From positions 1-52,534 of IMG/VR virus record IMGVR_UViG_3300027972_000016: a stretch of DNA of 52,534 nt; one strand, 5' to 3'. Position numbers and translations under genes: made by a program. Positions 18,139 to 49,058 of the stretch are shown here, one piece after another; position 1 is the stretch's first letter; each line of letters begins with the position of its first letter. This stretch comes from a virus. A model generated the notes under the pieces. The model did not search any database, was not told where the DNA came from, and saw nothing but the letters and a program-made list of their open reading frames with translations.

Positions 18139-18324
18139 ATGGCAACTTACACTACAGGGAAAATTAAAAACCCAAATGCAAAAGTAACAAAACAAACAAC
18201 TCCTAAAGGTAGAGTTGGTGGAACATCTGTTGCACCAGGTAAAGAAGCAGTTAAATCTGCTAAACCAAAAGGAAGAGTTGGTGGAACTAGTACAGCACCT
18301 AAAAAAGCATCTCCTTCTAAATAA
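18139..18324 (+). CDS. Small basic protein with tandem RVGGTS repeats
   Basis: 61 residues, rich in Lys, Pro, Thr and Gly. The module PKGRVGGTS-x-AP occurs twice (residues ~22-35 and ~43-56), separated by a Lys/Ala linker. It has no hydrophobic core and is probably disordered and DNA- or protein-binding. Short basic proteins with this repeat occur near capsid genes of other large phages of Bacteroidota, from memory. It is the first member of the basic island, and its stop codon lies inside a terminator hairpin. Confidence 0.65.
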   Translation: MATYTTGKIKNPNAKVTKQTTPKGRVGGTSVAPGKEAVKSAKPKGRVGGTSTAPKKASPSK

Positions 18325-18341
18325 GGAGATGTTTTAATTTT
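18308..18341 (+). terminator. Terminator overlapping the stop codon of the preceding gene
   Basis: CATCTCCTT (18308-18316) and AAGGAGATG (18323-18331) are perfectly complementary around a 6-nt loop, followed by TTTTAATTTT. The gene's TAA (18322-18324) lies at the loop and descending arm, so a terminating ribosome would melt the hairpin. Confidence 0.75.
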
Positions 18342-18354
18342 AAATTTTATTATT

Positions 18355-18615
18355 ATGGCAAGACCTAAAAAAACAGTTGCTGAACCAAAGGTAAAAGCAT
18401 CTAAAGTAGAAAAAGCTCAAGTTAAAAAAGCTAAAGTTGAAGTTGAAGTAAAAGAAGAAACAATAGTTGAGAAAGTGGAAGAAGTAGTAGAGGCTGTTGC
18501 TGAAAAGATTCTTGAAGTTAACAAAGCTGTAGTAGCTGAAAAATCTTCACTTGAAAGTTTAAAAAATAAAATAGTTTCTAAAGCTAGATTTATTTTACAA
18601 ACAATCCGTGGTTAA
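18355..18615 (+). CDS. Small lysine/valine/glutamate-rich protein
   Basis: 86 residues. It starts MARPKKTVAEPKV and continues as a low-complexity Lys/Val/Glu helix (KVEVEVKEETIVEKVEEVVE). The last 25 residues are more ordered and basic (LESLKNKIVSKARFILQTIR). It reads as an amphipathic or coiled-coil protein with basic ends. No family is recognised. It begins after the 18308 terminator and is followed 12 nt later by a 49-residue basic gene. Confidence 0.55.
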   Translation: MARPKKTVAEPKVKASKVEKAQVKKAKVEVEVKEETIVEKVEEVVEAVAEKILEVNKAVVAEKSSLESLKNKIVSKARFILQTIRG

Positions 18616-18627
18616 TACTATATAACA

Positions 18628-18777
18628 ATGGCTAAGAAAATGATTAAAAGAGCAGATGGTAGTTATTCACAAAAAGGATTATGGGATAATATCCGTGCTA
18701 ATAAAGGATCAGGTAAAAAACCTACAGCAGAGATGCTGAAGCAAGAAAAGAAAATTAAATCTAAAACTAAAAAATAA
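18628..18777 (+). CDS. Very small basic protein
   Basis: 49 residues: MAKKMIKRADGSYSQKGLWDNIR, then ANKGSGKKPTAEMLKQEKK and a Lys-rich end. The 'KGLWDNI..NKGSGKKPTAEML' pattern looks like a small protein common to large phages of Bacteroidota, recalled rather than checked. It sits in a tight series of small genes (5 nt to the next ATG). The high lysine content suggests nucleic-acid contact; function unknown. Confidence 0.6.
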   Translation: MAKKMIKRADGSYSQKGLWDNIRANKGSGKKPTAEMLKQEKKIKSKTKK

Positions 18778-18782
18778 ATATT

Positions 18783-18947
18783 ATGAAAAAAGTAATTTTA
18801 ATTTTAAGTGTAATTGCATTAGCATCTTGTCATGCAGTAAGTGAAGGACCTCTTCCAGTAGCTGATTCTACTGCTGTTGATAGTTTAGTAATTGATACTT
18901 TAGTTGTTGTATCTGACTCAGTTAAAGTAGACTCTTTAAAAAAATAA
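18783..18947 (+). CDS. Tiny lipoprotein with type II signal peptide
   Basis: 54 residues. MKKVILILSVIALASC is a textbook lipoprotein signal: basic start, hydrophobic core and lipobox L-A-S-C with Cys16 as the lipidation site. The mature 39 residues are acidic with repeated '(V/I)DSL'-like units (AVDSLVIDTL, SVKVDSL), resembling short lipoproteins of Bacteroidota. No acidic export signal directly follows the Cys, so the final side of the membrane is uncertain. Possible roles are superinfection exclusion, blocking a receptor, or an outer-membrane spanin; its distance from the lysis cassette argues against spanin. It stands alone among basic head-region genes. Confidence 0.7.
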   Translation: MKKVILILSVIALASCHAVSEGPLPVADSTAVDSLVIDTLVVVSDSVKVDSLKK

Positions 18948-18949
18948 TT

Positions 18950-19240: not shown

Positions 19241-19488
19241 TGGCAAAGACTCCAGCTTGGCAACGCAAAGAAGGCAAGGCTCCTTCTGGTGGTTTAAACG
19301 CAAAAGGTAGAGCTTCTTATAATAAAGAAACTGGTGGTAACTTAAAAGCTCCACAACCTGAAGGAGGTCCTAGAAAAAAATCTTTTTGTGCTAGAATGTC
19401 TGGTATGAAGAAGAAATTAACTAGTAGTAAAACAGCTAATGATCCTGATTCAAGGATTAATAAAGCTCTTAGAAAATGGAAGTGTTAA
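19240..19488 (+). CDS. Small basic protein resembling phage family DUF6321
   Basis: 82 residues. The distinctive order AWQRKEGKAPSGGLNAKGRA, then KKSFCARMSGMKKKLTS and DPDSRINKALRKWKC, closely matches a small conserved phage protein that I recall as DUF6321 (not verified here). It is basic, with a Gly-Gly and two conserved cysteines, and lacks hydrophobic segments. The family function is unknown; it is found mostly in phage structural regions. The start overlaps the previous stop as TAATG. Confidence 0.7.
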   Translation: MAKTPAWQRKEGKAPSGGLNAKGRASYNKETGGNLKAPQPEGGPRKKSFCARMSGMKKKLTSSKTANDPDSRINKALRKWKC

Positions 19489-19505: not shown

Positions 19506-19880
19506 ATGAAAAAGTGTATGAAATGTGGTGGTGCTAAAATGAAAAAAGGCGGTTCTACAATGAAAACAACTGTAGGATCTTCTACACCAAAAGGTCAAAT
19601 ATATGGTATTCCTAATGGTGGTCCAACAGGACCAAACTTACAAGGAATTGATACTATGAAAAAAGGTGGTTCTAAAGTAACTGCTGTTAAGGTTGGTTGC
19701 CCTCCAGGAACAGTTAGATCTGAATCAGGTGGATGTGTATCACAAAGACCAAGTCCTTTTTCTAAAATGAAAAAAGGTGGGTTTCCAGATTTAAATAAAG
19801 ATGGTAAAATTACCAAAGCTGATATCTTAAAAGGTAGAGGTGTTATTAAGAAAATGGGTGGTACAACTAAAAAGAAATAG
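19506..19880 (+). CDS. Basic protein with repeated KKGG motifs and an EF-hand-like loop
   Basis: 124 residues. Four K-K/M-G-G motifs occur (KMKKGGST near residue 16, TMKKGGSK, KMKKGGFP, KKMGGTT), plus CGG at the start. Between the third and fourth is DLNKDGKITKAD (residues 95-106), which satisfies the DxNxDGxIxxxD calcium-loop pattern of EF-hands and dockerins. The N-terminus has a CMKCGG pair. The protein looks like short modules joined by KKGG junctions. The same GG dyads recur in the giant cargo proteins at 39-46 kb, hinting at a common processing or assembly signal. Confidence 0.6.
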   Translation: MKKCMKCGGAKMKKGGSTMKTTVGSSTPKGQIYGIPNGGPTGPNLQGIDTMKKGGSKVTAVKVGCPPGTVRSESGGCVSQRPSPFSKMKKGGFPDLNKDGKITKADILKGRGVIKKMGGTTKKK

Positions 19881-33715: not shown

Positions 33716-36700
33716 ATGGCAAAGAAAAATTTACAAGATACTTCTAAAGCAATCACAAACAGTTTTATAAAAGGTCTTAACAAAGATGCTGATCCATCAT
33801 ATGTAACAGAAGGAATGTGGACCCATGCTATCAACATGGTTAATAACTCTAAAATAGGTAAAGTTGGATCTATATCTAATGAGTCTGCAAACTATATTTG
33901 CTTTACTACAGGTTTAACTATGCCACTTACTGTAACTGAGAAATTAGTTATAGGAGTAATATATTTATTTTCTGATAAATGGATTGTGTTTACTGCTGGT
34001 CATGATTCTCAAGGTAGACCTATTTCAGCTGAGATAGGTTTATTTGAAGAAGAGTTATGTTTATACAGACCAATTGTACAAGATCCATGTTTAGCATTTG
34101 ATAAAAGATTTTTAATATCTGGTGCAGCAAGACTAAAATCAGATTGTTCATGGCAAGTGTATTGGGCAGATGGATTAAATCCTGATAGATATTTAAATAT
34201 TGGTGATCCAAAATCTTGGCCTCCTAGTAATTATATTTTTAATGGAGGTACTGGTTTAAATGGTAATTATTACATAGGACCTGCTGGAAGCAAAATACTT
34301 TGGCCAGGTGTACAATGGAATCAAAAATGTACAGATGAAAATGAAATAGTTGTTCCTAAACTTAATTATACTCCTATAGGTTGTATAACTTGTACAAATC
34401 TTAATACTCTTGATTGCACTAGAATAAGAATTGCAAGATTAATGGAAACTCCATGTTTAAATCTTAAACTTGGTGTTCAAGGTGGTACATTAGCTAATGG
34501 TACTTACTTTGCAGTTATTGCATATTTGATTGATGGTCAAAGAGTTACAGATTATTTTTCTCAAAGTAATAACCAACCAGTATTTTATGTAAATGATTTA
34601 GCTGGTTCATTAGATCTTGATGTACATGCAGATTCAGATAACTTTGATGAATTTGAATTAGTAATAGTTCAGAATATAAATCAAGGTACTGTAGCAAAAA
34701 GAATAGGTAATTATTCAACTAAGACAACAAGAATATCTATTGATCAAATTAATCCTTCAAACATAACTGTACCATTAGAACAATTACCTATTGTTACTCC
34801 TGTATATGAGAAATCTGATCAAATGGCTCAACTTAATAGTTATTTGTTAAGAGTTGGTCCAACATCTAAATTTGATTTTAACTATCAACCATTAGCTAAT
34901 TTAATTCAAGCTAAGTGGGCTTCAGTAGAATATCCTGGTGATTATTACATGAAAGGTGGTAACAAAACTAATTACTTGAGAGATGAGGTGTATGCATTTT
35001 TCATCCGCTGGGTATATGACACAGGAGATAAATCTCCTTCTTACCATATTCCAGGTAGAGTTCCTAGAGATTTTAATATTCCTGGTAGCGGAACAATAAA
35101 TGAAACTGCAACAATATATGCACAAGATTCATTAACTACTGATGATAAAACATTTGAAGTATTTAATACTGCTAGCGTAACAACTGGCTCATATGTTGGT
35201 ACTACTACTGATGATGGAGGTACTGTACTTGCTGTAGGAGATATGGGTTACTGGCAGTCATCTGAAAAATATCCAGATAATAGAGCTGATATATGGAATC
35301 CAAGTTATTACTGCTGGACAACTCCTGCTGGTAAAACTGGTGTATATGATCTATGTGGTAAAAATATTAGACATCATAAGTTTCCTGAAGATTATATCAA
35401 TGGAAGTACTAATACTAATGTAACTCATTTTGCATCTAATCCTAATCCTGCTACAGTAGGTAGTCAATATACTATAAGGTTATTAGGTGTATACTTTGAG
35501 AATATTATATTACCAAAAGATAATGATGGTGTTGATATTCCAGGTCTTGTTGGTTATGAAATATTAAGAGGTTCTAGAGAAGGTAATAAAACAATTATTG
35601 CCAAAGGAATGGTTAACAACTTTAGAACCTATAAGTTAAGAGGAGCAATAGGAACTAACCGTACAGGACTGTATGCTAATTATCCATTCAACACTATTAC
35701 ACCTATAACAAGTCCATTAAATGGTCATGCTGCAGGAGTTAATGATCCTTACATACAGTTAAGAGATGCTGATGATAATTACTATAGTCAAGAGATACCG
35801 GAAGATATATTTACTTTCCATTCTCCTGATACTATGTTCCGTACTCCATTTCTTTCTACACAAGAATTTAAGTTGTATGGAGTATTATCTGGTTATAGTA
35901 ATCAACAGTTTCAAGAACCAAGTCAACATCCTAGATTTAAATTACTAGCTGATGATGCAATAAAACCAATGCTTTTACTAGGTATTGCTGAAGCAATTGT
36001 ATCTATGGTAGGTAAAAGAACGGATTCAACACCTAGCATTATTCCTGCTACAGGTGTATCTGATGGTTTAGCTGTTGCTTATGGAGCATATGTAACTGCA
36101 GCTACAGGTCTGCAAACTTTACCAACACCTTTAACTTCTCCAATAACATTATACAATACATTTTTTAATAACTATTATTCATCAGGTGCAGCTATTGCGG
36201 ATATTGGACTAAGTCTTTTAAGTTTACCAACTACAGTAGACGTTGCTGAAGGACTTATAGTAACTGCATTAAATGCTACTTCTATTGCTCAAGTTAATGC
36301 GCCTATTATTAGAACAGGTACAATTGAGTTACCTGACTATGCTTATTTACCAGGGCCCTTAAAAATATTAGGAGGACTAAATCAAGCTTTGTTTTATTTT
36401 TCTGAAGGAGCCGATATAGCATTAAGAATACTATATGCTTCTACTTCTTATAAACAATATGCATTACAACAAATAGCATATGGTTATTATGGAACAATGA
36501 CTCCTCCTTCAATTAATAATCTTAGAAGATTTAAAATTGAAGATAGTTTTTACTTAAGAGATAACATACAAGAAGTTAGTAGATATCAAAATAGTTCTGG
36601 TGCATATGTATCTTATAATATTAACAATCTTAAAAGATCTGCTTCAGTTGTAGTAAGAACAGTAAGTGGTCCTTATAAAGATGCAAGTAAACCTAATGGT

Positions 36701-39145
36701 GTAACTACAGGTCCATATTTATTACCAGATGATAAATCTTTAACTACACTCGGTGGTGTTGTTCAAGGTAATCAATCATATTTTTTACCAGGTACATTAC
36801 CTACATTTGAAAGACCTACATTACCTTTTAGTTTACCAATTCAAAGTCATTATGGAGCTTTAAAAGGTAGAGTAAGAAATCAATATGGTCAACTAGACTC
36901 AATTAAACAAATTGTAATTACTCCTTGTGAACAAACATTTAATACTAATGAAATAGTTCCTACAGGACCAACTATTTGTTTAACCAAACCGTATTTATAC
37001 AAAACAATACAAAGAACTCCTATATTATTTGGAGGAGATACTTATATAAATAGATATACTGAAAAGAACAATATGATGTTCTTTTATGATTGGTTGTATG
37101 ATCAACCTGATGGGTTTGAATATAACTACTATTTAAGAAATATGATTCCTAATCCTAGGTTTAGGCTCAATAGTACTTTGTATGATGTTCAAAATTTAGC
37201 AAGTTTAATTTCTTTTAGTGCAAGTCCTAGTCCTGGTACTGGAGCATTACCTTCTATTTTTTATAATCTTGATTATTACTTTGATAGTATTAGATTTTAT
37301 AATTATAATAATGATACATTAGGAAATCCAGAGGCATTAGCAATTCTATTAGGAACTTATGACGGATTATTTTCTGTTAAAAAGGCTTTCTTTTATTTAG
37401 CTAATTCATCTATAAGAGATTTCTTTGTAGAGAGTGATGTTATTGTAGACTTTAGTCAACAAGGTGAAACTATTGGAGAAAAGCATTATGATCCATATAG
37501 ATACACTGATTACTTTGCAATGTTTGATATGAACCCATTAGTAATGGGTAGAAACAGTGCATACATATATGATTACTCATTAAGTGTATCTAAGTTATAT
37601 AACCAATATTTTTCTGCAGGTCTTACACAAAGTAGATATTATGATCCTAATGTAGCTGCATTATGTTTTACTTATTATCCTAACAGAGTAATATATTCAT
37701 TACCTCAACAAAATGAATCAGTAAAAGATAGTTGGTTTATATATTTAGCAAATAACTATAACCAGTTTTTATCACAAATCAGTGGTGTAAAAGCTATTAA
37801 TAAAAGTGGGGTTATCTTTACTTTTAAAAATGATAGTCCTGTAATGTATCAAGGTGTTGATACTTTACAAACTGATTTAGGTACCAAGATTACAATTGGA
37901 GATGGTGGATTATTTAGTCAACCTCAACAAGCAATCACTAATGCTGATAAAGCATATGAGTATGGAGCATCACAAAATAGACTGTCTGTTATATCTACAC
38001 CAGTAGGTATATATTATATGTCTCAAAGTGCTGGTAAAGTATTTAGTTTTGGAGATGGTTTACAAGAAATATCTCAGAATGGTATGAAGTGGTGGTTTAC
38101 TTTATTCTTACCATATAAATTAACTGAAGATTTTCCAAATTATCCTTATCAGGATAATCCAGTTGCTGGTATAGGATGTCAATCTGTATATGATAATACC
38201 AATGGAGTATTATACTTTGCTAAGAAAGATTATAAACTTAAATCAGAATATGAAGGAAGAGTAACTTATGTTCCTTTAAATCTAAATGGTACAGGAGATT
38301 ATTTCTTATTAGATGGAAACTCAGCTCAGTTCAGAATAGGTAATCCATTTTTATTTGATGATGCATCTTGGACAATTAGTTATGATCCTAAAAATCAGTT
38401 CTGGATTAGTTTCCATGACTGGCATCCAGATTTATTAATTCCAACAAAAGATGTATTTATTTCCACTAAGAAAAATGGAGGTTGGAGACATAATTGGTCA
38501 TGTACTAAATTCTGTAACTACTATGGTACAGATTATGCATGTGAAATAGAGATTCCAATTGTTACTGGTCAAAATGTAATGACTACTAGATCAATAGAAT
38601 ACATACTTGAAGCATATAGAAGATCAAACCATAACTGTGTAGATCAACATCATGTATTAGACTTTAACTTTGATACAGCTGTTATTTATAACTCAGAGCA
38701 AGTATCTGGTTACTTAAACTTAAATATATATCCTAAGAATGATATAAACTTAAGTAGACAGTATCCTAAACTAAATGCTAACAATTCTTCATTTGATATA
38801 CTCTTTTCTAAAGAAGAGAATAAATTCAGGTTTAATCAATTTTGGGATATAACTAAAAATAGAGGTGAGTTTCCAATTGGTTCTAACTATCCTCCTACTG
38901 GACCTGTTATTCCTGGTACAACAGTATTGAATGGTAATTATGAATCTCAGAATACATGGATTACCGCTCCTGATGGTTATACTAGAATATTAAATCCTAA
39001 TAACTTAAGTTATAATAAGTCAGACCTTCAAAGAAAAAAATTCAGACATTACTTGAATTTCTTAAATTTGAAAAGAAATGTATCTAATGACATCAACTTT
39101 ATATTGAAAGTTAGTAATAGTAAAAATGAAATATCCTTCAGATAA
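33716..39145 (+). CDS. Tail hub 'muzzle' / stabilization protein
   Basis: 1809 residues, the largest gene here. The start (ITNSFIKGLNKDADPSYV, then GMWTHAINMVNNS and ISNESAN) is the signature I associate with the crAss-like 'stabilization' or muzzle protein, functionally like T7 gp12 or P22 gp10 that closes the tail. The remainder is mostly beta-rich with many Tyr/Asn/Pro turns, consistent with propeller-like repeats and long insertions. It likely caps the tail channel and anchors fibres. It is much longer than T7- or P22-type equivalents, as in crAss-like phages. It ends TAATG, overlapping the first cargo gene. Confidence 0.75.
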   Translation: MAKKNLQDTSKAITNSFIKGLNKDADPSYVTEGMWTHAINMVNNSKIGKVGSISNESANYICFTTGLTMPLTVTEKLVIGVIYLFSDKWIVFTAGHDSQGRPISAEIGLFEEELCLYRPIVQDPCLAFDKRFLISGAARLKSDCSWQVYWADGLNPDRYLNIGDPKSWPPSNYIFNGGTGLNGNYYIGPAGSKILWPGVQWNQKCTDENEIVVPKLNYTPIGCITCTNLNTLDCTRIRIARLMETPCLNLKLGVQGGTLANGTYFAVIAYLIDGQRVTDYFSQSNNQPVFYVNDLAGSLDLDVHADSDNFDEFELVIVQNINQGTVAKRIGNYSTKTTRISIDQINPSNITVPLEQLPIVTPVYEKSDQMAQLNSYLLRVGPTSKFDFNYQPLANLIQAKWASVEYPGDYYMKGGNKTNYLRDEVYAFFIRWVYDTGDKSPSYHIPGRVPRDFNIPGSGTINETATIYAQDSLTTDDKTFEVFNTASVTTGSYVGTTTDDGGTVLAVGDMGYWQSSEKYPDNRADIWNPSYYCWTTPAGKTGVYDLCGKNIRHHKFPEDYINGSTNTNVTHFASNPNPATVGSQYTIRLLGVYFENIILPKDNDGVDIPGLVGYEILRGSREGNKTIIAKGMVNNFRTYKLRGAIGTNRTGLYANYPFNTITPITSPLNGHAAGVNDPYIQLRDADDNYYSQEIPEDIFTFHSPDTMFRTPFLSTQEFKLYGVLSGYSNQQFQEPSQHPRFKLLADDAIKPMLLLGIAEAIVSMVGKRTDSTPSIIPATGVSDGLAVAYGAYVTAATGLQTLPTPLTSPITLYNTFFNNYYSSGAAIADIGLSLLSLPTTVDVAEGLIVTALNATSIAQVNAPIIRTGTIELPDYAYLPGPLKILGGLNQALFYFSEGADIALRILYASTSYKQYALQQIAYGYYGTMTPPSINNLRRFKIEDSFYLRDNIQEVSRYQNSSGAYVSYNINNLKRSASVVVRTVSGPYKDASKPNGVTTGPYLLPDDKSLTTLGGVVQGNQSYFLPGTLPTFERPTLPFSLPIQSHYGALKGRVRNQYGQLDSIKQIVITPCEQTFNTNEIVPTGPTICLTKPYLYKTIQRTPILFGGDTYINRYTEKNNMMFFYDWLYDQPDGFEYNYYLRNMIPNPRFRLNSTLYDVQNLASLISFSASPSPGTGALPSIFYNLDYYFDSIRFYNYNNDTLGNPEALAILLGTYDGLFSVKKAFFYLANSSIRDFFVESDVIVDFSQQGETIGEKHYDPYRYTDYFAMFDMNPLVMGRNSAYIYDYSLSVSKLYNQYFSAGLTQSRYYDPNVAALCFTYYPNRVIYSLPQQNESVKDSWFIYLANNYNQFLSQISGVKAINKSGVIFTFKNDSPVMYQGVDTLQTDLGTKITIGDGGLFSQPQQAITNADKAYEYGASQNRLSVISTPVGIYYMSQSAGKVFSFGDGLQEISQNGMKWWFTLFLPYKLTEDFPNYPYQDNPVAGIGCQSVYDNTNGVLYFAKKDYKLKSEYEGRVTYVPLNLNGTGDYFLLDGNSAQFRIGNPFLFDDASWTISYDPKNQFWISFHDWHPDLLIPTKDVFISTKKNGGWRHNWSCTKFCNYYGTDYACEIEIPIVTGQNVMTTRSIEYILEAYRRSNHNCVDQHHVLDFNFDTAVIYNSEQVSGYLNLNIYPKNDINLSRQYPKLNANNSSFDILFSKEENKFRFNQFWDITKNRGEFPIGSNYPPTGPVIPGTTVLNGNYESQNTWITAPDGYTRILNPNNLSYNKSDLQRKKFRHYLNFLNLKRNVSNDINFILKVSNSKNEISFR

Positions 39146-42100
39146 TGGGAAATAGAAAAGAACTCATAAAAGCTACAAGAGAATTAGATAAAGCTAAAGC
39201 TCCTAAGAAACAAAAAGATATAATCACTGATCCTATGGGTCAGTGGAAATATCCTGGCCAACCAACTAGAATCCCTGGTAGTGATATTACTATGCAGGGA
39301 GTTAATTATCCTGTTATGGCAGTAGCAAGTACTGGTCAAAAACAAATGATGGTACCTGGTGCTGAGTATACATTTCCTGGAGCTGACTATGTAGATGAAT
39401 TTCCTCAGATGAAAAAAGGAGGAGGATTAAAAAGAGGAACTACAAAGAGTCTTTCAGGAACTAATAAGTTAATGAAGAAGAATCCTTTGTTTAAGAATTA
39501 TAAACATAAGTTATTTGATCCTAAGTCTAAACATTTTCAAAATGGTGGTATTAGAAAATTTGATGAAGGTGGTGATACAGAATCTACAACAGCACCAAGT
39601 AAACCATCAATAAGCCCAAAAGAACAATATCAAAATACAATAAAGAATAATTATAAAACATATTTACAATCTGTAAACAATGTTACTCCTTATACAAAAG
39701 CTACAAGAGAAGGAGAAATGAATTGTATACATGGTGTGTGTACAGTTATAGAAGGTTCTGGTGCTAAAAAGTTTGATAGTGAGTATATTGGTAACATGAC
39801 TTTTAATGATGCTAGAAAAAAAGAAGGCTATTATGAGGTAGATCCAAAAATTGAAGGTTTTGAAATAGGTGATATTGTACAATATGCAAGAACAAAAGCA
39901 AATGCAGCTTCTGCAGGAAGATTTAAACCAGGTAGTTCATTAACTCCAGTTAATAAAGATGATCTTATTCCGCAACATGCTAAAGTAATTTTAAATAAAT
40001 ATGTTGATGAAAATAACATTACCAGATATGTAGTTGGTCATAATGAAGGTACAGATAAATTTCTTATAAGTAAAGATGATGATGGTAATGATATAAAAGA
40101 AGAAACTTTATTTAAACATTATTTAGATGGCTATAATACATATGATGGACTTATTGTAAATAGATATGATCCAGAAGCAGTAGAAAAAAGAGAAAAAGAA
40201 AAAAGAACAAAGCAAGATATCATATTTGGGAAAAATAGTTATGCTAATATGTATAATGAAAAACCTGAAATAGTTCTCAAACAAGAAACCTTTGATGATA
40301 AGTTTAATAAAAAAATTGTAGAAAGTTCTGGTAAAAGAAAAGAATTATTAAACTATTACAAAAACAATTATAACAAGTTAGGTAAAACAGCAAACATGCC
40401 ACCTTCTGTTTTAAATAAATTATTTCATAATCAAATAGGTATAGCAGAACAAGAAAGTAAATTAGGTGAAGATTTAGGTATGAAAAATATTGTTCCTGAA
40501 AACTTACTTCCTACAGCAAGAAAACTAAAAGAAGCAACATCATCAAATGATGATTGGATAAAAGACTATTGGCAAAAAAATGCTAATAATGTTAAAACTC
40601 AATATAAAACTATTGATGATTTTAAAAAACATTTAAGTAGCAATAGTAAACTTAGTAAAGAAGCTAAAAACTATTTGTTTTATAATAGTCCAAAAAGTAA
40701 AGGTGTTTTTCAACAAAAAGAACTTTCAGAAAGAGGTAAATTATTAGGTTCAAACTTTGATACAAAAGAAAATGAGTTTTTATCTTCTATGTATTTAGCT
40801 ATTGATAACTATAGTATATTAAAAAATAAATATCCTGATTTATCAGAAGATGAATTAGTTGATCTTACTACTTTAATGCATAATGCTCCAGGAAAAGCTT
40901 TAACAAAAGAATATGTAGATTATTACTTAAAAAATAATGATATAGATTATGTAAATAAAGTTAAAGATCAAAGAGGTGTTATGGAAGTACCTGAGAAAAA
41001 ATCATTATCTAAATTAATACAAAATACTAATGATAATAAAAATAAACTTACAGATCAAGAAGCAGATAAATTAAAAAAATTTATAAACAGTAAACTACCT
41101 GCTAAACAAGATGGTGGTATGACAGGTATGATGAAAGGTAGAATTGCAACTGCTGCTCATTTTGGTAATCCAGCTGCTCAAAGAATGGTGAGTCCTAATC
41201 CTAAAAAAGGAATGACACCTGAAGGTGAAGGTACTCATTACATGGCAAGTATGGGAGAGTATGTTGTTCCATTCTTACAAGATAAAGGAGGAAACCGTTT
41301 AGAGTATAATGAAAATCCAGCACCAGGTAGAGAAGATATGAAATTTAATTCTCCAGAGGAAGCTGCTTATTTTGCAGAGCACTATAAAGAAGTTGCTCCA
41401 ATGATGAAAAATTATATAGAAGCAGAACTTACAGATGATGAAATAGAAGAATATAGAAAAGGTGGATATATTGTTGAAGATATATCTGTTCCTTCTTTAA
41501 ATCAGAGACAAGAGGGTGGAACTGAAAAACCTATTAATGCAGCTAACCCTTATTGGATACTAGATGAAGGAGAACCATTTAAAGTTAGACCATTTGATGC
41601 TCAGCTAGAATATAATAAAGCTAATCAAACTTTTGAGAATAGAATACCACAATCAGGTATGATAGAAGAAAGTGATATAGATCCTACAGATGTATTAAGC
41701 TTAGGAGCTGGTTTAGCTAAAACATTTGGTAAAGGTATTAGTAAAGCTTTATTAAAATCTGGAGCAAGAAGATTAGTAACTAAAAGTATAACACCTATTG
41801 GTTATGATCCATTTACTATAGCAGCTGCTCCTTTAGAATTACTTACACCAAAAGCATTAAAATTTAAACCAAAAACATATGCTACTAAAAATAGATATGA
41901 TGCATGGAAATTATATAATGGTTTAGAGCCTGAATTTAATACTTTTTCAAAAAATTTAGATGGTACATTAGCAATAAATGATTTTAGATTAAGTAAATAT
42001 AACTTACAAAATATAATTGATAATCCTAAAAAATCATTTGGTACTACAGACATAAAAAATGAATTTAATTTTGGAGGTGTTCATGGAAATGGATGGATCA

Positions 42101-43848
42101 CAAAAGGAGTAGATGAGAAAGGTAAAAAATTTATTGATTTTACAGATACTTGGGATTTACAACCTTTAAAAAATGTGAAAGGTTTACCTGATAAACTTAA
42201 AGAATTTGAAGTATCTTCTTTAACAGGAGGAAAACCTTTTGATTTAAAGAATAGAATTTATTATGATGATGCTGGTAATTTTTTTGATCATAAAGGAACT
42301 AAACTTGTTGAAGAAGTTCAACATTTTCCTAAGGGGATTGTGAAACAAAATGAAGCAGTAGATGAAATAATGTTAAGTACACCAAATGTTGTTGGAACAA
42401 AACAAATAGATGTATTAAAAGATTGGAACAAGGCAGTTAATCAAAAATTTTTTAAAGGGGCAGCTGCAGGATTTGGAAGTGTATTTGCAGGTCTAGAGTA
42501 TCATCTTAATAAATTAAAAGAAAAATCAAAAAAAGATTTAGATAAAAAAGCATATGGAGGTACTATAAAAAAGTTTGGTAAAGGAGGTAAAAAAGATTTA
42601 GATATATCAGTTAATCCAACTAAGCAACCATCTGCTTTTACTTTTACACCTTCTAGAATTCCAGGTAGTAAACAAGAGGCAGAAAGTATGTTAGCCTCAG
42701 GAGAACTTAAAGAAAGAAGTAATCCTCTTACTAAAGAAGATGTTAAACTTGCAGTAGATGCAGCTAGTGTAGGATTTTATCCAGCGGCAGTATTAGGATC
42801 CGCAATGGATGCTGCTGAAGGAAATTATATATCAGCGGCTTTGGGTTTAATACCTGTAGTAGGTAAAGCAGGTAAGCATGGAAAATTTTGGGGAAAAGCT
42901 TATACTAAAGCTATAAATGCAGGAGTTCCTAATGCTATTGCCTACCCCGCAAAAAAATATGGTAAAGCTTTTACACAAGGAAGTTCTATTGGTACTAATA
43001 TTCATGATGTTTATAATGATTTTAATCAAAACAAAAAAGCATATGGTGGATACATGCAAGAAGGTGGTATTAAAAATACACTTACTTTTCAAGAAGATGA
43101 AGAATCTACTTTATCTGATGAAGAATTTTTTAATCAACCTAATGAAAATGAAATATCTGATAAACCTACAAGATCAATGTATATTAGTGATCCAAGAAAA
43201 ATAAGAGCTACAACTGGTAAAAAAATAAGACCTAATGTTGATTTAAAAAGTGGAGAATATGATGTAGATGCAATTGAAAAATTAGCTGAATATGCAGTTT
43301 TAAGAGGTATAAATCCATATAGAGCAATTGCACAAGCATTGGCAGAATCAACTTTAGGAACAAAAACTCCTGATAATGTTGGTCATACCCGTCATGGTAA
43401 AAATAAAAACATGTATACTAATATGATGGATGCTATTATAGAAGGAGATTCATTAGCTAAAGTAAAAGGAAAAACTAAACCAGAAGAAATTATACAAGGA
43501 TATAATAGATATGGTAAGTTAACTTCTGATACTGAAAAAGATTATCATGGTGGTAAAGTTACTGGATTTTATGGTGTAAAGTTTCCAAAAGAAACAGGCT
43601 ACTTAGATATGAATAAAACTCCTTTGTATGGAATAGAAGTATTGGATTTACAAAAAAATGTACTTGAACCTAATGAAAAGATTAGAAGTATTGTACAACC
43701 ACAGCTACATCCTAGACCTCCGAAACCTGCAATACAGTACTTTAATAAAAATAGACCTGAGTTCTCTAAAGGTGGTGTAGTTGCTAAACTGAGTCAGAAA
43801 GAAATTGATGATTATATAAAACAAGGTTATATTGTAGAAGAAGAATAA
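39145..43848 (+). CDS. Giant cargo/ejection protein with several wall-hydrolase domains
   Basis: 1567 residues. Domain A (~180-310) looks like an NlpC/P60- or CHAP-type cysteine peptidase: C194 and C199, GDIVQYA, H278 in PQHAKVIL, and H299. Domain B (~425-650) looks lysozyme/transglycosylase-like: GIAEQES with E437, KGVFQQKE. Domain C (~660-760) carries GEGTHYMASMGEYVVPFL. Domain D (~850-1130) is unassigned. Domain E (~1360-1530) has another AQALAES (E1401) plus NVGHTRHG. GG dyads lie between domains (92, 134, 142, 657, 773, 791, 1138, 1147, 1301, 1307, 1543). A GG is followed by KLSQKEIDDYIKQGYIVEE at the C-terminus. Probably packaged in the head and ejected to breach the wall. Confidence 0.65.
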   Translation: MGNRKELIKATRELDKAKAPKKQKDIITDPMGQWKYPGQPTRIPGSDITMQGVNYPVMAVASTGQKQMMVPGAEYTFPGADYVDEFPQMKKGGGLKRGTTKSLSGTNKLMKKNPLFKNYKHKLFDPKSKHFQNGGIRKFDEGGDTESTTAPSKPSISPKEQYQNTIKNNYKTYLQSVNNVTPYTKATREGEMNCIHGVCTVIEGSGAKKFDSEYIGNMTFNDARKKEGYYEVDPKIEGFEIGDIVQYARTKANAASAGRFKPGSSLTPVNKDDLIPQHAKVILNKYVDENNITRYVVGHNEGTDKFLISKDDDGNDIKEETLFKHYLDGYNTYDGLIVNRYDPEAVEKREKEKRTKQDIIFGKNSYANMYNEKPEIVLKQETFDDKFNKKIVESSGKRKELLNYYKNNYNKLGKTANMPPSVLNKLFHNQIGIAEQESKLGEDLGMKNIVPENLLPTARKLKEATSSNDDWIKDYWQKNANNVKTQYKTIDDFKKHLSSNSKLSKEAKNYLFYNSPKSKGVFQQKELSERGKLLGSNFDTKENEFLSSMYLAIDNYSILKNKYPDLSEDELVDLTTLMHNAPGKALTKEYVDYYLKNNDIDYVNKVKDQRGVMEVPEKKSLSKLIQNTNDNKNKLTDQEADKLKKFINSKLPAKQDGGMTGMMKGRIATAAHFGNPAAQRMVSPNPKKGMTPEGEGTHYMASMGEYVVPFLQDKGGNRLEYNENPAPGREDMKFNSPEEAAYFAEHYKEVAPMMKNYIEAELTDDEIEEYRKGGYIVEDISVPSLNQRQEGGTEKPINAANPYWILDEGEPFKVRPFDAQLEYNKANQTFENRIPQSGMIEESDIDPTDVLSLGAGLAKTFGKGISKALLKSGARRLVTKSITPIGYDPFTIAAAPLELLTPKALKFKPKTYATKNRYDAWKLYNGLEPEFNTFSKNLDGTLAINDFRLSKYNLQNIIDNPKKSFGTTDIKNEFNFGGVHGNGWITKGVDEKGKKFIDFTDTWDLQPLKNVKGLPDKLKEFEVSSLTGGKPFDLKNRIYYDDAGNFFDHKGTKLVEEVQHFPKGIVKQNEAVDEIMLSTPNVVGTKQIDVLKDWNKAVNQKFFKGAAAGFGSVFAGLEYHLNKLKEKSKKDLDKKAYGGTIKKFGKGGKKDLDISVNPTKQPSAFTFTPSRIPGSKQEAESMLASGELKERSNPLTKEDVKLAVDAASVGFYPAAVLGSAMDAAEGNYISAALGLIPVVGKAGKHGKFWGKAYTKAINAGVPNAIAYPAKKYGKAFTQGSSIGTNIHDVYNDFNQNKKAYGGYMQEGGIKNTLTFQEDEESTLSDEEFFNQPNENEISDKPTRSMYISDPRKIRATTGKKIRPNVDLKSGEYDVDAIEKLAEYAVLRGINPYRAIAQALAESTLGTKTPDNVGHTRHGKNKNMYTNMMDAIIEGDSLAKVKGKTKPEEIIQGYNRYGKLTSDTEKDYHGGKVTGFYGVKFPKETGYLDMNKTPLYGIEVLDLQKNVLEPNEKIRSIVQPQLHPRPPKPAIQYFNKNRPEFSKGGVVAKLSQKEIDDYIKQGYIVEEE

Positions 43849-43906: not shown

Positions 43907-46201
43907 ATGGAAAAAAGAACAGTTAGAATTTACAAAGCTCCAGATGGTGAAGGTAAATTCATAAACAAAACTTCTCAGTTTTTACAAAAGGCTCAGCAAG
44001 GTGCGCAAGTACAGAGACCTGAGGATAAGATGTTGAAATATGCACAGTTTGTTTATAACAGATTAAGCAGAGAAGATTCTCCAGAAGAGATATATGATGG
44101 ACTTATGCAACAAGGATTATCTCCTGAAATTGCACAAGGTATAATCAGTCAGGTAATGGATAAAATGATTGATGCTGGTGAGTTAGATCCTGATTATAAT
44201 AAACAAGATGAGGAACAAGCTGCAGAACAAGAAGCTCCAGAAGAAGAAGAACAAGTTAGTGATAGTCAAGAAGAGGAAGAAGAAGTCTTGTCTAATATGA
44301 ACTATGCGGAAGATGAAGAGGAAGAAGGTACTGAAGAAGAAGGTAATGAACCTTGGGCTACAGATATGTATCAAGATGGAGGAGAACTTATTTCTACTGA
44401 AGGTGCAGAAGAGGAAAGACAAATACAGTTTCCTGGTGTAGAATCATATCTTCCTGATTATAATCCTATTGTTTGGGATAACATAGATGCTTTACAACCT
44501 CAACAATCTTTAAAACATGGTGGTATGCCATCTAAGAAAAGCTTTGTTAAGAATGTAATGTCTATTATTAAAAGACAAGCTGGTGGAGAAGGAGCGGATG
44601 CATCTAATGATATTGGTAAAGGAAATCCATTTGATACTGCTACTAATACTTTAGAAAAAAGAAAAAGTGGATTTTTAGATACACTTAAAAATCAAACTAC
44701 TAAAGCTAAGACAGAAGATATATACAAAAAATTAGTAAGTTCAAATGATCCTGACTTACATAAAGTAGCATCAGTATTAGCTGGACAACAACAAGCTCCT
44801 CAAGACTATAACTTTCCTGAACAACCCTATGCTCAAGTAGGTGGTTTTACAGGTGGAGAAGATCCATTATATAAATTTGTATATGGTGGAGATGATGAAG
44901 TTAATCCTGAGTATTATGAAGAAGATTATTTACCTGAAGCTCAAGATGGAAAAACAGTAGAAAAGAAAGATACAGAAAAAAAAGATACAGATAAAAAAGT
45001 TGTGGATCCTTGGGAAGGATATGAAATTAGAAAAGCTAAAGTTTCTTATACCCCAAGAGTAAAGACAACTGCAGGCGGGTTGAGGGGAACCTTATTACCT
45101 TGGAATCCTATTGGGCGTGTGACAGGTCAAACTGCTGAACAAGTAGGTCAACCTTATAACATAAAAGATAATACACCTTACACAGGTTCAGTACAAGGTC
45201 AAACTCCTATTGCTAGATATACAACTAAAACTACAATGTTTGGAAGAAGACCAAAAGAATGGATTGATATCTATCAAGCTCCAACTTATCCTGGCCGTAC
45301 TCCAGAAAAAGTTTTATCTAAAGAAGAGTTAGCTGCTTTAAAAAAAGAAGAAGAAGTTGTAAAAATGCAGGAAGATACTAGAAAAAAACAATTTCAACCA
45401 TCTGTTAAACCTGCAACTATAAATACAACTAACACTGATAATCAAACTGAAACACTTGGTGAATCAAAATATGGTTATCAATATGGTGGTGCTTTAAGTA
45501 AATATTTTCCAGGTGGTATTACTGATCCAAGAGAGATAAGTAAAAAGAAATCTGATCCTACTAGTTATATGACAGAACAAGAGGGTTATCTAGGTAATCC
45601 TTTTGGAAGACCTACTTTTGGTAGATCAGAATCTTATGCTGATCAAAGAAATCCTTCATTATATGATAATGGTGTAGCTAATACTAATACACAAAGTTTT
45701 GATCCTACACGTATACAACCAATAAATGCATCTCCTACAGCAAATTCAACAGAAGAAGCAACTGTAAAACAATCAAATTTACCTCAACTTGGAACTGAGC
45801 CAGAATATTATGGTATAAAAGGTAAAGCAAAAAATCAAAGATCATTTGATGGTGAAGCTGCTGTAAATGTTTTCAATGCTGGTACTCAAGGAGTATTAGG
45901 TATGATAGAGAGAAGACAACAAGGTAAACAAGAAAGAAAGATGATGGAGAATGAGTTTAATGCAGATAACTTATATGCAACATCTACAGATAAAGATAGA
46001 GGAGATTGGGTAGACTATGGTTCTCAACTTGGTCAATATAGATTTGATCAGATGGGTCAAGATAGAAGTGGTAGATTCTCTTATGGACAAGAAGGTGGAT
46101 ATATGCAAGAAGGTGGATTTACAGAAGGGGAAGAAGTAGAAATGACAGAAGCTGAGTTAGCAGATTTTATTGCTAATGGAGGTGAAGTAGAATATATTTA
46201 A
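43907..46201 (+). CDS. Cargo/internal virion protein with acidic tract and GG dyads
   Basis: 764 residues. It begins RTVRIYKAPDGEGKFINKT, a start I associate with internal proteins of large phages of Bacteroidota. Residues ~100-150 are an extreme Glu/Asp tract. GG dyads recur: YQDGGEL, LKHGGMP, RQAGGEG, AQVGGFTGG, VYGGDD, YQYGGAL, and finally QEGGYMQEGGFT. The last 20 residues (EMTEAELADFIANGGEVEYI) match the tail motif of the preceding protein. No catalytic motif is recognised. Likely packaged with the genome; the acidic tract might screen DNA or mimic it. Confidence 0.6.
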   Translation: MEKRTVRIYKAPDGEGKFINKTSQFLQKAQQGAQVQRPEDKMLKYAQFVYNRLSREDSPEEIYDGLMQQGLSPEIAQGIISQVMDKMIDAGELDPDYNKQDEEQAAEQEAPEEEEQVSDSQEEEEEVLSNMNYAEDEEEEGTEEEGNEPWATDMYQDGGELISTEGAEEERQIQFPGVESYLPDYNPIVWDNIDALQPQQSLKHGGMPSKKSFVKNVMSIIKRQAGGEGADASNDIGKGNPFDTATNTLEKRKSGFLDTLKNQTTKAKTEDIYKKLVSSNDPDLHKVASVLAGQQQAPQDYNFPEQPYAQVGGFTGGEDPLYKFVYGGDDEVNPEYYEEDYLPEAQDGKTVEKKDTEKKDTDKKVVDPWEGYEIRKAKVSYTPRVKTTAGGLRGTLLPWNPIGRVTGQTAEQVGQPYNIKDNTPYTGSVQGQTPIARYTTKTTMFGRRPKEWIDIYQAPTYPGRTPEKVLSKEELAALKKEEEVVKMQEDTRKKQFQPSVKPATINTTNTDNQTETLGESKYGYQYGGALSKYFPGGITDPREISKKKSDPTSYMTEQEGYLGNPFGRPTFGRSESYADQRNPSLYDNGVANTNTQSFDPTRIQPINASPTANSTEEATVKQSNLPQLGTEPEYYGIKGKAKNQRSFDGEAAVNVFNAGTQGVLGMIERRQQGKQERKMMENEFNADNLYATSTDKDRGDWVDYGSQLGQYRFDQMGQDRSGRFSYGQEGGYMQEGGFTEGEEVEMTEAELADFIANGGEVEYI

Positions 46202-46211
46202 TTTTTATATT

Positions 46212-49058
46212 ATGCCAAAAGTTAGGATAACAAAATTGCCAATGGCAAGAACTGGATACCAAGTAAAGTATTCATTAGCTAATGATGTACCAGCAATGGG
46301 TGGTGCAGACTATAATGTTTACACGGGAGAGAAACAACTCAGACCAAGTAAAACTATCAGGGCTGTTCCTAGAGAAGAAGCTAATCTAGAAGCTGAAGGT
46401 GGTGAAACTGTATTTGGTGATCTTAATGGTGATGGAATGCCTGAGAGCAAAACCATTGTAGGACCAAGACATAGAGATGGTGGTGTTCCTTTAAATCTAC
46501 CAGATGATACTTATATCTATAGTGACTTTAGAGGAATGAACATTAAAGATCCTAAGGTACTTGCAATGTTTGGTAAAACTGGAAAAAACAGAGGTTATAC
46601 TCCAGCAGATCTAGATAAGCAATATGATATAATGAAGTATAGAACTATACTTCAAGATCCTAACTCAGATGATATAGATATTAAAACTGCTGAGTTAATG
46701 ATTAAAAATTATATCATGAAGAAAGGTGCATTAGCTCTAGCGGCTGAAGCTTCTAAAGGATTTCCTCAAGGTATCCCTGCTGTAGCAAAACCTTATATGC
46801 AAGCTAATGGTATTCAAGAAACAGATTTAATTCCTGAACAATTAGCAAATTTATCTAAACAAGTTGATGGTCAGTTAAAATCTCAGAACAGACAAGCTGA
46901 AGATGAAACAGATGAATCATTTTCAGAATATGATGCTGCTCAAGATATAAACCAAGGTCAACCTGTAGCTCAACCTACAATGGCTCAGTATGGAATGACA
47001 ATGGGTGGTTATGATATGCCATTTACTGATGAGGCTGGTACAGATTATAGTATTCCTGCTGCAGAGTATGGTATGTCTATGGGTGTTAATTCTAATAACT
47101 ACCAAGGTAGAACTAGAAGCATTTCCGGTAGCGGTCCTGTATATCCATTTAATACTAGAAGAGTTCCTGTAAGAGCATATGGTGGTGAATTAAACACATA
47201 TCAAGATACAGGTGCAGTTAAAGAATCAGAAAATAAACCTATTGATGTAACAGGTAAAACTGATGCTGAAATTTATAGGTTAATGTGGGATGCTAAACAA
47301 AAAGATTCTAAGGCTCAACCTGTGTTTACTAGAAATGGTAAAAAATTAAAATATAAAGAAGCTGCAGAATTTAAAGGAGAAGAAGCTGGAAAAAAAGTAA
47401 CTGCTGATGAACTTAAAGATTTAAATATTAAAGATACACCAACTAATAGAGCTGCTGCAGCTCAACATTTATTATTAAAAAAAGAACTGAGTGATCCTAA
47501 ATCAAAAGTAAGAGCTGAATATATTAAGCAAACAAGAGAATCCTTAAATGATCCTAATACTTATGGAAAAAAAAGAGGTAAAGAATTACAAGAACATTTT
47601 AAAACTAATGCTCCATCTGATGATGATATAATAAAATCAGCATTAAACATTAACAAAAGAACCCATATGCTTGCTGCAAATGGATTTGATGCAAGAATGT
47701 TTAATAATGCTGGTACAGGATTAGATACTCCTGAAAATTTAGTAAAAGATGGTGTTTATAAATCAGTTGATGAAGCTAAAAAAGCTATAGCTGATTATAA
47801 AACAAAAGGATGGACAGATAAGGATAAAGTTATTTCTAGTATAGGTGCTGAAGCATTAGGTAAAGATACAGATATTGCTTTAGAACAAGCAACAACACAT
47901 GGTTATAGAAGAATGCAAAATAATCTTTTAACTGGTGCATATAAAAATGATGCTGATGCAAATTATGCATTATCAGGTTTCTTAGGTGATCAAGGTAGAG
48001 AAATGAATGAAGGTAGATCTGATGAAAGAGATATTTATGGTGGTAAAGGTTCTAACATATCTCCTATTGATGCTGTAGCAGGTAATACTACATTAGCACA
48101 GAAACAAGCATCAGGTACTCAAATGGGTACCTTTGAAGAAGAAGCTGCTGCTTCAGCACCTACTAAAAAATGTCCAGTATGTGAAAAATCAGATGGTACA
48201 AAAGTTCTGTTAACAGTTGATCCAAATACAGGAGAATGTTATCCATGTGAAGAAGATGTACCAGTAGACTATGAAAAACCTGCTGAATGGTGGTTACAAG
48301 ATACAATCAAAACAGCCGGTGCTTTTGGTGACTTGATGAGAGCAAAGAAATATATGCCTTGGGCTCCTACTGCTAAGTTGGAAACTCCTAAAGCTACATT
48401 CTTAGATCCTACTAGAGAGTTAGCAGCACAAGCTGAACAAGCAAATATACAAACTCAAGCATTAGGACAATTTGCTGGACCTCAAGCTTTATCTGCAAGA
48501 TCAGCTGGTATACAAGGACAAGCTGCTAAATCAGCTGCTGATACTCTTTCTAGATATAACAATGCTAATGTTAATCTAGCAAATCAATATGAATCTGCTA
48601 ATGTTAATATTAGAAACCAGGAACAAGCTGGTAATCAAGCTATCAAAAAAGGATTGTATGATGCAAACACAATTGCTAATCAACAATTTGATAATACTAA
48701 AGGAGCTTTAAGAGGTAACTTCAGAAATCAATATGCCAATGCAATTACAAACCGTTGGAAAACTGATGCACTAAATCAAATAAATCCTCAGTATGCTGTT
48801 AGCGCAGGTGTTGGTGGTAAATTACAATTTACTCAAGGTAAGAAATTTAAACCTGAAGCATCTGGTAAAACATTTGATGAGTTGTATACATACTATAAAG
48901 ATCTAGGAGATCCGGATCCTTCAAAAGCTGCAGAGAGAGCGCTGCGCCCAAGAACTACATCAAAAGATGATAAGTTAGCAGCTTTAGAAGCACAGTATGG
49001 ACAAATGAAAAGAGGTGGGTTTATATATGCAGATATGATAACTCCATTCTTACTATAA
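46212..49058 (+). CDS. Cargo/internal virion protein with conserved PLNLP domain and zinc ribbon
   Basis: 948 residues. Residues ~50-106 hold EEANLEAEGGETVFGDLNGD, then RHRDGGVPLNLPDDTYIYSDF, a segment I recall as strongly conserved in internal or ejection proteins of phages of Bacteroidota. The middle is helical and Lys/Asp-rich. C654, C657, C676 and C679 (CPVC ... CYPC) form a zinc ribbon. Residues ~730-870 are Ala/Gln/Asn-rich long helices, as in ejection proteins that form channels. GG occurs in MGG, YGG and near the C-terminus KRGGF. Probably ejected with DNA. Confidence 0.6.
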   Translation: MPKVRITKLPMARTGYQVKYSLANDVPAMGGADYNVYTGEKQLRPSKTIRAVPREEANLEAEGGETVFGDLNGDGMPESKTIVGPRHRDGGVPLNLPDDTYIYSDFRGMNIKDPKVLAMFGKTGKNRGYTPADLDKQYDIMKYRTILQDPNSDDIDIKTAELMIKNYIMKKGALALAAEASKGFPQGIPAVAKPYMQANGIQETDLIPEQLANLSKQVDGQLKSQNRQAEDETDESFSEYDAAQDINQGQPVAQPTMAQYGMTMGGYDMPFTDEAGTDYSIPAAEYGMSMGVNSNNYQGRTRSISGSGPVYPFNTRRVPVRAYGGELNTYQDTGAVKESENKPIDVTGKTDAEIYRLMWDAKQKDSKAQPVFTRNGKKLKYKEAAEFKGEEAGKKVTADELKDLNIKDTPTNRAAAAQHLLLKKELSDPKSKVRAEYIKQTRESLNDPNTYGKKRGKELQEHFKTNAPSDDDIIKSALNINKRTHMLAANGFDARMFNNAGTGLDTPENLVKDGVYKSVDEAKKAIADYKTKGWTDKDKVISSIGAEALGKDTDIALEQATTHGYRRMQNNLLTGAYKNDADANYALSGFLGDQGREMNEGRSDERDIYGGKGSNISPIDAVAGNTTLAQKQASGTQMGTFEEEAAASAPTKKCPVCEKSDGTKVLLTVDPNTGECYPCEEDVPVDYEKPAEWWLQDTIKTAGAFGDLMRAKKYMPWAPTAKLETPKATFLDPTRELAAQAEQANIQTQALGQFAGPQALSARSAGIQGQAAKSAADTLSRYNNANVNLANQYESANVNIRNQEQAGNQAIKKGLYDANTIANQQFDNTKGALRGNFRNQYANAITNRWKTDALNQINPQYAVSAGVGGKLQFTQGKKFKPEASGKTFDELYTYYKDLGDPDPSKAAERALRPRTTSKDDKLAALEAQYGQMKRGGFIYADMITPFLL

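What the first reader, a model, noticed from the sequence alone, without database searches (positions are those of the whole stretch)
18139..49058. Gly-Gly dyads between modules of cargo proteins and in small basic proteins: possible maturation or assembly signal
Short motifs of the form K/Q/E/Y-rich residues followed by GG (MKKGG, QDGG, QEGG, YGG) occur about eleven times in the 1567-residue cargo protein, mostly at predicted domain boundaries. They recur about eight times in the 764-residue protein, several times in the 948-residue protein, and four times in the 124-residue protein of the basic island. Recurrent GG at domain junctions in packaged proteins would fit a processing protease cutting polyprotein-like cargo, or a docking tag. 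The HExxH peptidase at 28310 and the NlpC/P60-like domain in the cargo protein itself are candidate enzymes. The link is inference; the motif pattern is seen.
Basis: partly seen in the sequence, partly recalled or inferred. Interest (0 to 1): 0.7.

Follow-up and report, generated by a model that had tools for sequence, protein, structure and literature searches.

The report
Recurrent Gly-Gly motif in phage cargo
A crAss-like phage and its relatives string together the different parts of the proteins they probably pack inside the virus particle with one recurring short motif (an aromatic residue or Met, then Gln/Lys, then Asp/Glu/Lys, then Gly-Gly), which marks module joints and is nearly absent from the rest of the genome; it looks like a shared docking or processing signal, but cutting at it is not shown and is probably not the main role.

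Summary
Bare GG counts are only mildly above composition (1567-aa protein: 16 vs 10.5). The longer motif [FYM][QKRE]xGG is strongly enriched. In six complete relatives it occurs at 1.8-12.9 per 1000 aa in the cargo proteins after the muzzle and in small basic proteins near the capsid gene, against 0.10 in 207,825 aa elsewhere. In 89 non-redundant relatives, GG is the first and second of 303 dipeptides at edges of homology blocks. It follows a conserved N-terminal module in about 90% of cases although unrelated sequence comes next.

The HExxH gene is absent from all 32 relatives searched, no NlpC/P60 domain is detectable, and Pro is not significantly depleted after GG. Three GGs lie inside the virion-resolved domain of crAss001 cargo gp45. 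A second class of GG lies in a helix-Gly-strand tail where only one Gly is constant. Best reading: a docking/joint motif of modular, ejected 'polyvalent' cargo. Rivals: a maturation cleavage site, or a passive linker.

The parts
39145..43848 (+). C1-type modular cargo protein, 1567 aa, directly downstream of the muzzle gene
   Evidence: 24 related loci; same place after the muzzle in 6 of 6 complete relatives; no PHROG or Pfam hit
39223..39408 (+). Conserved N-module (residues 27-88, DPMGQWKYPG..ITMQGV.YPV..DEFP)
   Evidence: AlphaFold2 pLDDT about 90 (means of 10-residue blocks 79-94) over this part, falling to about 53 from residue 91; 333 IMG/VR stretches encode a relative; Foldseek match to phi4:1 virion protein gp040, E 5.7e-5
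39409..39423 (+). MKKGG joint just after the folded N-module
   Evidence: GG columns 92-93 at least 90% conserved in 44 full-length relatives; the following sequence is unrelated between members
39535..39549 (+). FQNGG joint (residues 131-135)
   Evidence: aligned with FQDGG/YQDGG/FEDGG in most of the first 20 relatives
41104..41118 (+). KQDGG joint before the 'GTHYMAS' module
   Evidence: module homologues
41416..41481 (+). Internal helix-Gly-strand element IEAELTDDEIEEYRKGGYIVED (residues 758-779)
   Evidence: 14 of 15 internal copies have GG, whereas 12 of 12 C-terminal copies in the same set have QG (one C-terminal exception with GG, L091)
41506..41520 (+). RQEGG joint (residues 788-792)
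42574..42588 (+). FGKGG motif (residues 1144-1148)
43054..43068 (+). MQEGG motif (residues 1304-1308), six residues after AYGG
43762..43776 (+). FSKGG motif before the C-terminal tail
43789..43845 (+). C-terminal helix-Gly-strand tail LSQKEIDDYIKQGYIVEEE
   Evidence: same kind of tail ends other C1-type and 764-type proteins in complete relatives
43907..46201 (+). 764-aa cargo protein with YQDGG, YQYGG and MQEGG motifs; tail MTEAELADFIANGGEVEYI at 46142-46198
   Evidence: homologues in 4 of 6 complete genomes at the same place
46212..49058 (+). 948-aa cargo protein; GG at residues 30-31 and 90-91 invariant inside a conserved block; MKRGG near the C-terminus (49005-49019)
   Evidence: 7-sequence alignment; weak BLASTP match to phi4:1 gp040, E 3e-4 in a four-protein comparison
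19506..19880 (+). 124-aa basic protein, mosaic of short cassettes joined by MKKGG (19539-19553, 19656-19670, 19767-19781), last cassette EF-hand/dockerin-like
   Evidence: homologues show cassettes exchanged after KKGG/AKGG; weak Dockerin/EF-hand Pfam hits below the curated cut-off
33716..39145 (+). Muzzle protein, context marker for the cargo cluster
   Evidence: Pfam crAss_MUZ 5.4e-23

Best explanation
The motif [FYM][QK][DEK]GG is a short linear motif in the joints between modules of proteins probably carried inside the virion of a crAss-like phage group. Shown: enrichment, near-confinement to the cargo cluster and the small basic proteins, position at module joints, conservation of the GG while the module after it changes, and a predicted folded N-module ending just before it. 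Inferred: the proteins are packed in the head and ejected through the tail. Inferred and less certain: the aromatic/Met - Gln/Lys - acidic part is a docking or condensation element recognised by a common partner in the assembling head (capsid, portal, another cargo protein, or the motifs themselves), and the GG that follows is a flexible hinge. The hinge lets modules be exchanged and lets the chain be threaded partly unfolded through the tail. A separate helix-Gly-strand tail (LTxxEIxxYxxxGYIVEE) shared by two cargo families is probably a second docking tag, in which GG is only a helix cap. Cleavage at GG is not required by the data.
For: Motif density in six complete relatives: small basic 12.9, 764-type 4.7, C1-type 2.4, 948-type 1.8, everything else 0.10 per 1000 aa. 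Logo over 426 non-redundant sites: F/Y/M three positions before the first G (z 7.5-10.5), Q two before (5-fold, z 18), D/E one before. A passive linker does not need this. GG ranks 1st (366 vs 191) and 2nd (532 vs 286) of 303 dipeptides at homology-block edges. Homology often ends exactly on the second G. The N-module is predicted folded and the joint lies just outside it. Its remote relative phi4:1 gp040, annotated in GenBank as a virion protein from MS/MS, carries FQAGG, YQNGG, FQIGG and FQSGG, 4 vs 0.19 expected. The shared C-terminal tail is found on two different cargo families. Tandem motifs six residues apart suit avidity better than cutting.
Against: No binding partner is known. Conservation lies on one side only of GG, which is also how a protease site looks. 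No direct proteomic evidence exists for this phage, and packaging rests on synteny with phi4:1 and crAss001. The small basic proteins are not shown to be virion proteins. The second structure model (GTHYMAS module with its GG joints) was too poor to use. Some members lack the first joint (L021, L086, L101), so a given copy is dispensable.
Confidence: 0.45

Rival explanations
1. Maturation cleavage: a protease cuts after (or between) the two glycines inside the prohead or after ejection, splitting polyprotein-like cargo and trimming small basic proteins, in the manner of adenovirus AVP ((M/I/L)XGG-X and XGX-G sites, acting on core proteins) or, from own knowledge, of T4 and phiKZ prohead proteases acting on internal proteins.
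For: Specificity lies on the unprimed side with an open primed side. Homology often stops exactly at the second G. The same motif is shared by large cargo and small basic proteins, as AVP sites are in adenovirus core proteins (PMC7998265). Internal N-modules are preceded by GG in 26 of 37 copies, so cutting would recreate a protein beginning near DPxGQW as in the N-terminal form. Zincin modules are common in the family, and processing by zincins has been predicted for phage polyvalent proteins (PMC5512222).
Against: Pro follows GG in 13 of those 26 junctions and is not significantly depleted after GG overall (20 vs 26.6). The HExxH gene at 28310 is absent from motif-bearing relatives. Members with their own HExxH have fewer motifs (2.8 vs 4.3 per 1000 aa, P 0.005). 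Three GGs lie inside the resolved portal-bound domain (425-552) of crAss001 gp45 in mature virions (PMC10172136), though these are not strict motif copies. No conserved protease was found among the window's core genes by Pfam.
Confidence: 0.25
2. Passive joint: GG is only a flexible spacer retained where modules are shuffled by recombination; flanking preferences reflect spread of a few linker cassettes by descent, not a read-out signal.
For: Block edges coincide with GG. Cassette exchange is visible in small proteins. Some joints have a single G (AQDGAIV) or none.
Against: The preference for F/Y/M and Q survives removal of similar sites (426 sites). The order is directional: the reversed motif is not clearly enriched, and [FYMW]QxG followed by non-G is not either. 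The motif is nearly absent from other large proteins of the same genomes. GG codons vary, so there is no conserved DNA joint.
Confidence: 0.25
3. Internal translation starts or another DNA/RNA-level signal: AAAGGAGG inside KGG codons acting as a ribosome-binding site.
For: Some joints read ATGAAAAAAGGAGGT.
Against: GGT GGT is the commonest codon pair; ATG 4-14 nt downstream is no more frequent after GG (0.238) than after any Gly (0.235).
Confidence: 0.02

Closest known systems
Crassvirus cargo proteins (crAss001 gp45/gp46; phi4:1 gp038-gp041)
   Same: Position directly after the muzzle gene; large proteins; phi4:1 counterparts annotated as virion proteins from MS/MS; crAss001 gp45 is also GG-rich (21 vs 13.2)
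   Different: Strict [FYM][QKRE]xGG motifs are absent from crAss001 gp45 and phi4:1 gp041 and present in phi4:1 gp040; C1-type size varies from 324 to over 2500 aa by module exchange
Polyvalent proteins of phages and conjugative elements (Iyer et al. 2017, PMC5512222)
   Same: Multi-domain phage proteins likely packaged and injected, rich in zincin metallopeptidases, with lysozyme domains in some; processing predicted
   Different: A fixed N-module and a defined joint motif; the paper's own domains were not tested one by one here; zincin presence and motif number are not positively linked
Adenovirus AVP (and, from own knowledge, African swine fever virus pS273R) Gly-Gly maturation sites
   Same: A Gly-Gly motif with unprimed-side specificity, found in internal proteins including small basic ones (PMC7998265)
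   Different: Hydrophobic residue one position further from GG; no such protease found; cleavage not shown; Pro tolerated after GG
Polymorphic toxin systems
   Same: Constant N-terminal part with exchangeable enzyme modules
   Different: Several modules per chain, phage-virion context, N-module not found in 84,980 bacterial and archaeal genomes by this method

Membership tests
Crassvirales cargo protein | Gene lies in the structural cluster right after the muzzle | tested here: met
   Muzzle by Pfam; cargo gene starts within about 10 nt of the muzzle gene in 6 of 6 complete relatives
Crassvirales cargo protein | Protein present in the virion | not testable with these tools
   Only indirect: phi4:1 gp040, a remote relative of the N-module, is annotated from MS/MS
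Phage polyvalent protein | Two or more domains incl. effector or peptidase domains in one chain, packaged with phage | tested here: inconclusive
   HExxH modules in 44 of 121 members and Phage_lysozyme in 6 of 44; no enzyme domain significant in the window's own protein
AVP-like GG maturation site | Viral protease with matching specificity, conserved with the sites | tested here: inconclusive
   Named candidate 28310 absent from 32 of 32 relatives; no other protease among the window's core genes by Pfam; only part of each genome was examined for proteases
AVP-like GG maturation site | Cleaved termini after GG in mature virions | not testable with these tools
   Needs virion proteomics
Double-glycine leader (C39 peptidase substrates, from own knowledge) | One GG ending a short N-terminal leader of a small secreted peptide | tested here: not met
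   Sites are internal, many per protein, in proteins up to thousands of residues
Dockerin/EF-hand (124-aa protein) | Pfam score above the curated cut-off | tested here: not met
   Dockerin_1 15.1 bits vs 22.9 needed
NlpC/P60 (1567-aa protein) | Match to PF00877 | tested here: not met
   No match at E 1e-3 in a six-frame search of the window nor at E 1 in hmmscan

The most novel reading that the evidence does not exclude
A crAss-like phage lineage uses one Gly-Gly linear motif as a common address or cutting code for everything stored inside its virion. Either an unknown phage protease matures modular cargo at [FYM][QK][DEK]GG, a phage counterpart of adenovirus-type Gly-Gly maturation, or the motifs act as repeated stickers that condense cargo and basic proteins in the head.
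Probability: 0.35. Interest if true: 0.8.

Novelty: new variant of a known kind. Interest (0 to 1): 0.55.

Why it matters
How crAss-like phages select, pack and eject megadaltons of cargo protein is an open question. A short motif that is almost confined to this class, in hundreds of contigs and in at least one cultured phage (phi4:1), gives a direct handle. It predicts which small proteins are virion-internal, marks module borders of otherwise unannotatable giant proteins, and can be tested by virion proteomics. The exchangeable modules between motifs are also a source of unknown injected enzymes.

Tried and rejected
NlpC/P60 as candidate enzyme: no Pfam support; PDB searches of two segments gave nothing convincing (the second gave only a lysozyme hit at E 0.0045 with no stretch passing on its own). 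HExxH 28310 as general enzyme: rejected. Zincin in cis as the reader of the motif: not supported by density. Internal starts and DNA-level joint: rejected. Search for the 764-aa protein in IMG/VR: no pattern match, uninformative. tblastn of the 764- and 1567-aa proteins in the phage collection: none. N-module in bacterial genomes: none. Fold of the N-module in PDB: no significant match, only weak cupin-like hits. Structure of the GTHYMAS module: model too poor. Breakpoint test on the small proteins: inconclusive. A 'GGWLxKY' follow-on motif seen by eye in internal-module phages: none in the six complete genomes. Literature searches for a described GG motif in phage cargo found none in the held library.

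Full report
What the window is. It is a 52.5-kb viral contig of 31% GC with a crassvirus layout: terminase and portal (the portal matches many crassviruses), major capsid protein, a run of small basic proteins (18139-20484), ring proteins, a muzzle protein (Pfam crAss_MUZ), and then four large genes of 1567, 764, 948 and 1037 aa. The same order follows the muzzle in complete relatives. In Cellulophaga phage phi4:1 the genes at this place, gp038-gp041, are annotated as virion proteins from MS/MS.

Checking the observation. The GG dyads are present. As bare dyads they are close to what composition gives. The excess is in the longer motif: [FYM][KQRE][KDENQ]GG is about 40-fold above shuffles in the 1567-aa protein, 150-fold in the 124-aa protein and 30-fold in the 764-aa protein, on small counts. 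So the real object is a short linear motif ending in GG.

Related sequences. A search with the 1567-aa protein gave 24 loci, and an alignment of its N-terminus matched 333 stretches in IMG/VR. Members range from 324 to over 2500 aa. All share a module of about 60 residues (DPMGQWKYPGxxTRIPxxxITMxGVxYPV...FPGAxYVDEYP) and then differ. AlphaFold2 gives this module about 90 pLDDT over residues 27-88, dropping to about 53 from residue 91, where the MKKGG joint lies. Foldseek finds it in phi4:1 gp040 (E 5.7e-5), and a profile search finds it there and in Leptolyngbya phage Lbo-JY46. It was not found in 84,980 bacterial and archaeal genomes by this method.

GG conserved, modules not. In 44 full-length relatives the GG after the module is at least 90% conserved. 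Over 88 scorable copies, 79 have GG within 3-5 residues after the module's last anchor, 76 of them at exactly the same place. What follows is unrelated: KSKKYTR, TAIPTVEDA, YMKGLVPMP, AAGCPPNCP, WSGGG and others. In 37 of the copies the module is internal or its ORF is open at the 5' end. GG then stands a few residues before DPxGQW in 26 of them (FKKGG-VII-DPRGQW, KQEGG-PIL-DPRGQW), while the remaining 11 mostly have a single G such as AQDG-AIV. Several of these 37 are similar to one another, so the number of independent cases is smaller.

Joints in general. In 89 non-redundant relatives, GG lies near block starts 366 times (191 expected) and near block ends 532 times (286 expected), ranking 1st and 2nd of 303 dipeptides. 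In the first 20 relatives homology ended exactly on the second G far more often than at any other offset. BLAST alignments tend to end on high-scoring matches, so the exact offset should be read with care; the dipeptide ranking is the control for this.

The motif. After removing similar sites, 426 GG sites show F, Y or M three positions before the first G (3.8-, 2.6- and 3.4-fold), Q (5-fold, z 18) or K two before, D or E one before, and little after GG beyond a mild I/L/V/T preference two residues on. The reversed motif is not clearly enriched, and [FYMW]QxG without the second G is not enriched.

Where it occurs. In six complete relatives (115-136 kb) the motif density per 1000 aa is 12.9 in small basic proteins, 4.7 in 764-type, 2.4 in C1-type, 1.8 in 948-type and 0.10 in the remaining 207,825 aa. 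The small-protein group was chosen after seeing which proteins had motifs, so that figure is partly selected. The C1, 764 and 948 groups are defined by synteny, and several of the 21 hits outside the groups are also small proteins.

A second kind of GG. Internal copies of LTxxEIxxYRKGGYIVEDIS have GG in 14 of 15 cases, while the C-terminal copies in the same set read QGYIVEE or a close variant in 12 of 12. One later sequence (L091) ends with GG. The 764-type proteins end in a similar tail...MTEAELADFIANGGEVEYI. Across these tails only one Gly is constant, as expected for a helix cap before a strand, so these GGs should not be counted as the same signal. In the 948-aa protein, GGs at residues 30-31 and 90-91 are invariant inside a conserved block.

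Cutting or docking. For cutting: one-sided specificity, the parallel with adenovirus AVP sites and substrates, and processing predicted for phage polyvalent proteins. Against cutting: Pro after GG in 13 of 26 internal-module junctions and no significant depletion of Pro overall; no conserved protease among the window's core genes by Pfam; the HExxH candidate absent from relatives; no positive link between zincin modules and motif number; tandem sites six residues apart. That most proteases disfavour Pro right after the cut is general knowledge, not tested here, and a cut between the two glycines would escape this argument. In crAss001 gp45, residues 425-552 are resolved as one domain at the portal (PMC10172136) and include GG at 427, 434 and 447. 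For docking: the preference for aromatic/Met and Gln, near-confinement to presumed virion-internal proteins, many copies per chain, and presence in MS-detected phi4:1 gp040. I favour docking plus flexible joint (0.45) over cutting (0.25) and passive joint (0.25). None is proven.

Payload. HExxH occurs 51 times vs 0.95 expected in 121 family members, in several sequence contexts, and six of 44 match Phage_lysozyme. The family thus looks like crassvirus 'polyvalent' injected proteins. That is resemblance; the defining domains of that class were not tested one by one.

Limits. Packaging of these proteins is inferred from synteny and one remote relative. ORF calls in the relatives are mechanical. 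The small basic proteins are not known to be in virions. The evidence linking phi4:1 gp040 to the 1567-aa protein concerns only its N-terminal part.

Noticed in passing
L076 9752-11971 (phi4:1 gp041): phi4:1 gp041, annotated 'tail protein' from MS/MS, has a lysozyme-like start by eye and two HExxH motifs (HEFTH, HELNH), so the enzyme-bearing cargo role seems kept without the GG motif.
   Followed up: partly
G001 contig (L227, L232, L233): The 135,860-base relative carries two capsid-protein-like genes (5333-6949 and 127508-129124) and two portal- and terminase-like genes near its ends, with slightly different termini: terminal duplication, two genomes joined, or an assembly artefact.
   Followed up: no
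41098-41532 and homologues: A recurring module (NAMMKARxAxANxxGNPAAQRM...GTHYMASMDNYAVP...PEDAxYFAEHYK) sits between GG joints in many relatives, sometimes directly after the N-module; no known family was found and the structure model was poor.
   Followed up: partly
19506-19880 and L025-L073: Small basic proteins are mosaics of interchangeable 25-40 aa cassettes (FPDLNKDGKITKADILKGRGVIKK; SxFGMLSVKAGVDKNPKPTAADRIAGAK; GLSKLPTAVRNKMGYMKK; CPPGTVRSxxGGCVSxRP) in different order in different phages.
   Followed up: partly
L014 10001-11332 and L147 6827-10921: Zinc-ribbon-like cassettes (CKKCGWEWNAADGGKDITTCHKCGG) recur among the modules; their GGs belong to the ribbon, not to the joint motif.
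   Followed up: no
28310-28876: A zincin-like HEVVH protein between the tail-related genes, without homologue in 32 related records; perhaps an accessory gene.
   Followed up: partly
L224 30388-32916 (crAss001 gp45): gp45 has several GGs between the piece resolved in the tail (214-245) and the piece resolved at the portal (425-552); whether both pieces belong to one uncut chain was not examined here.
   Followed up: no
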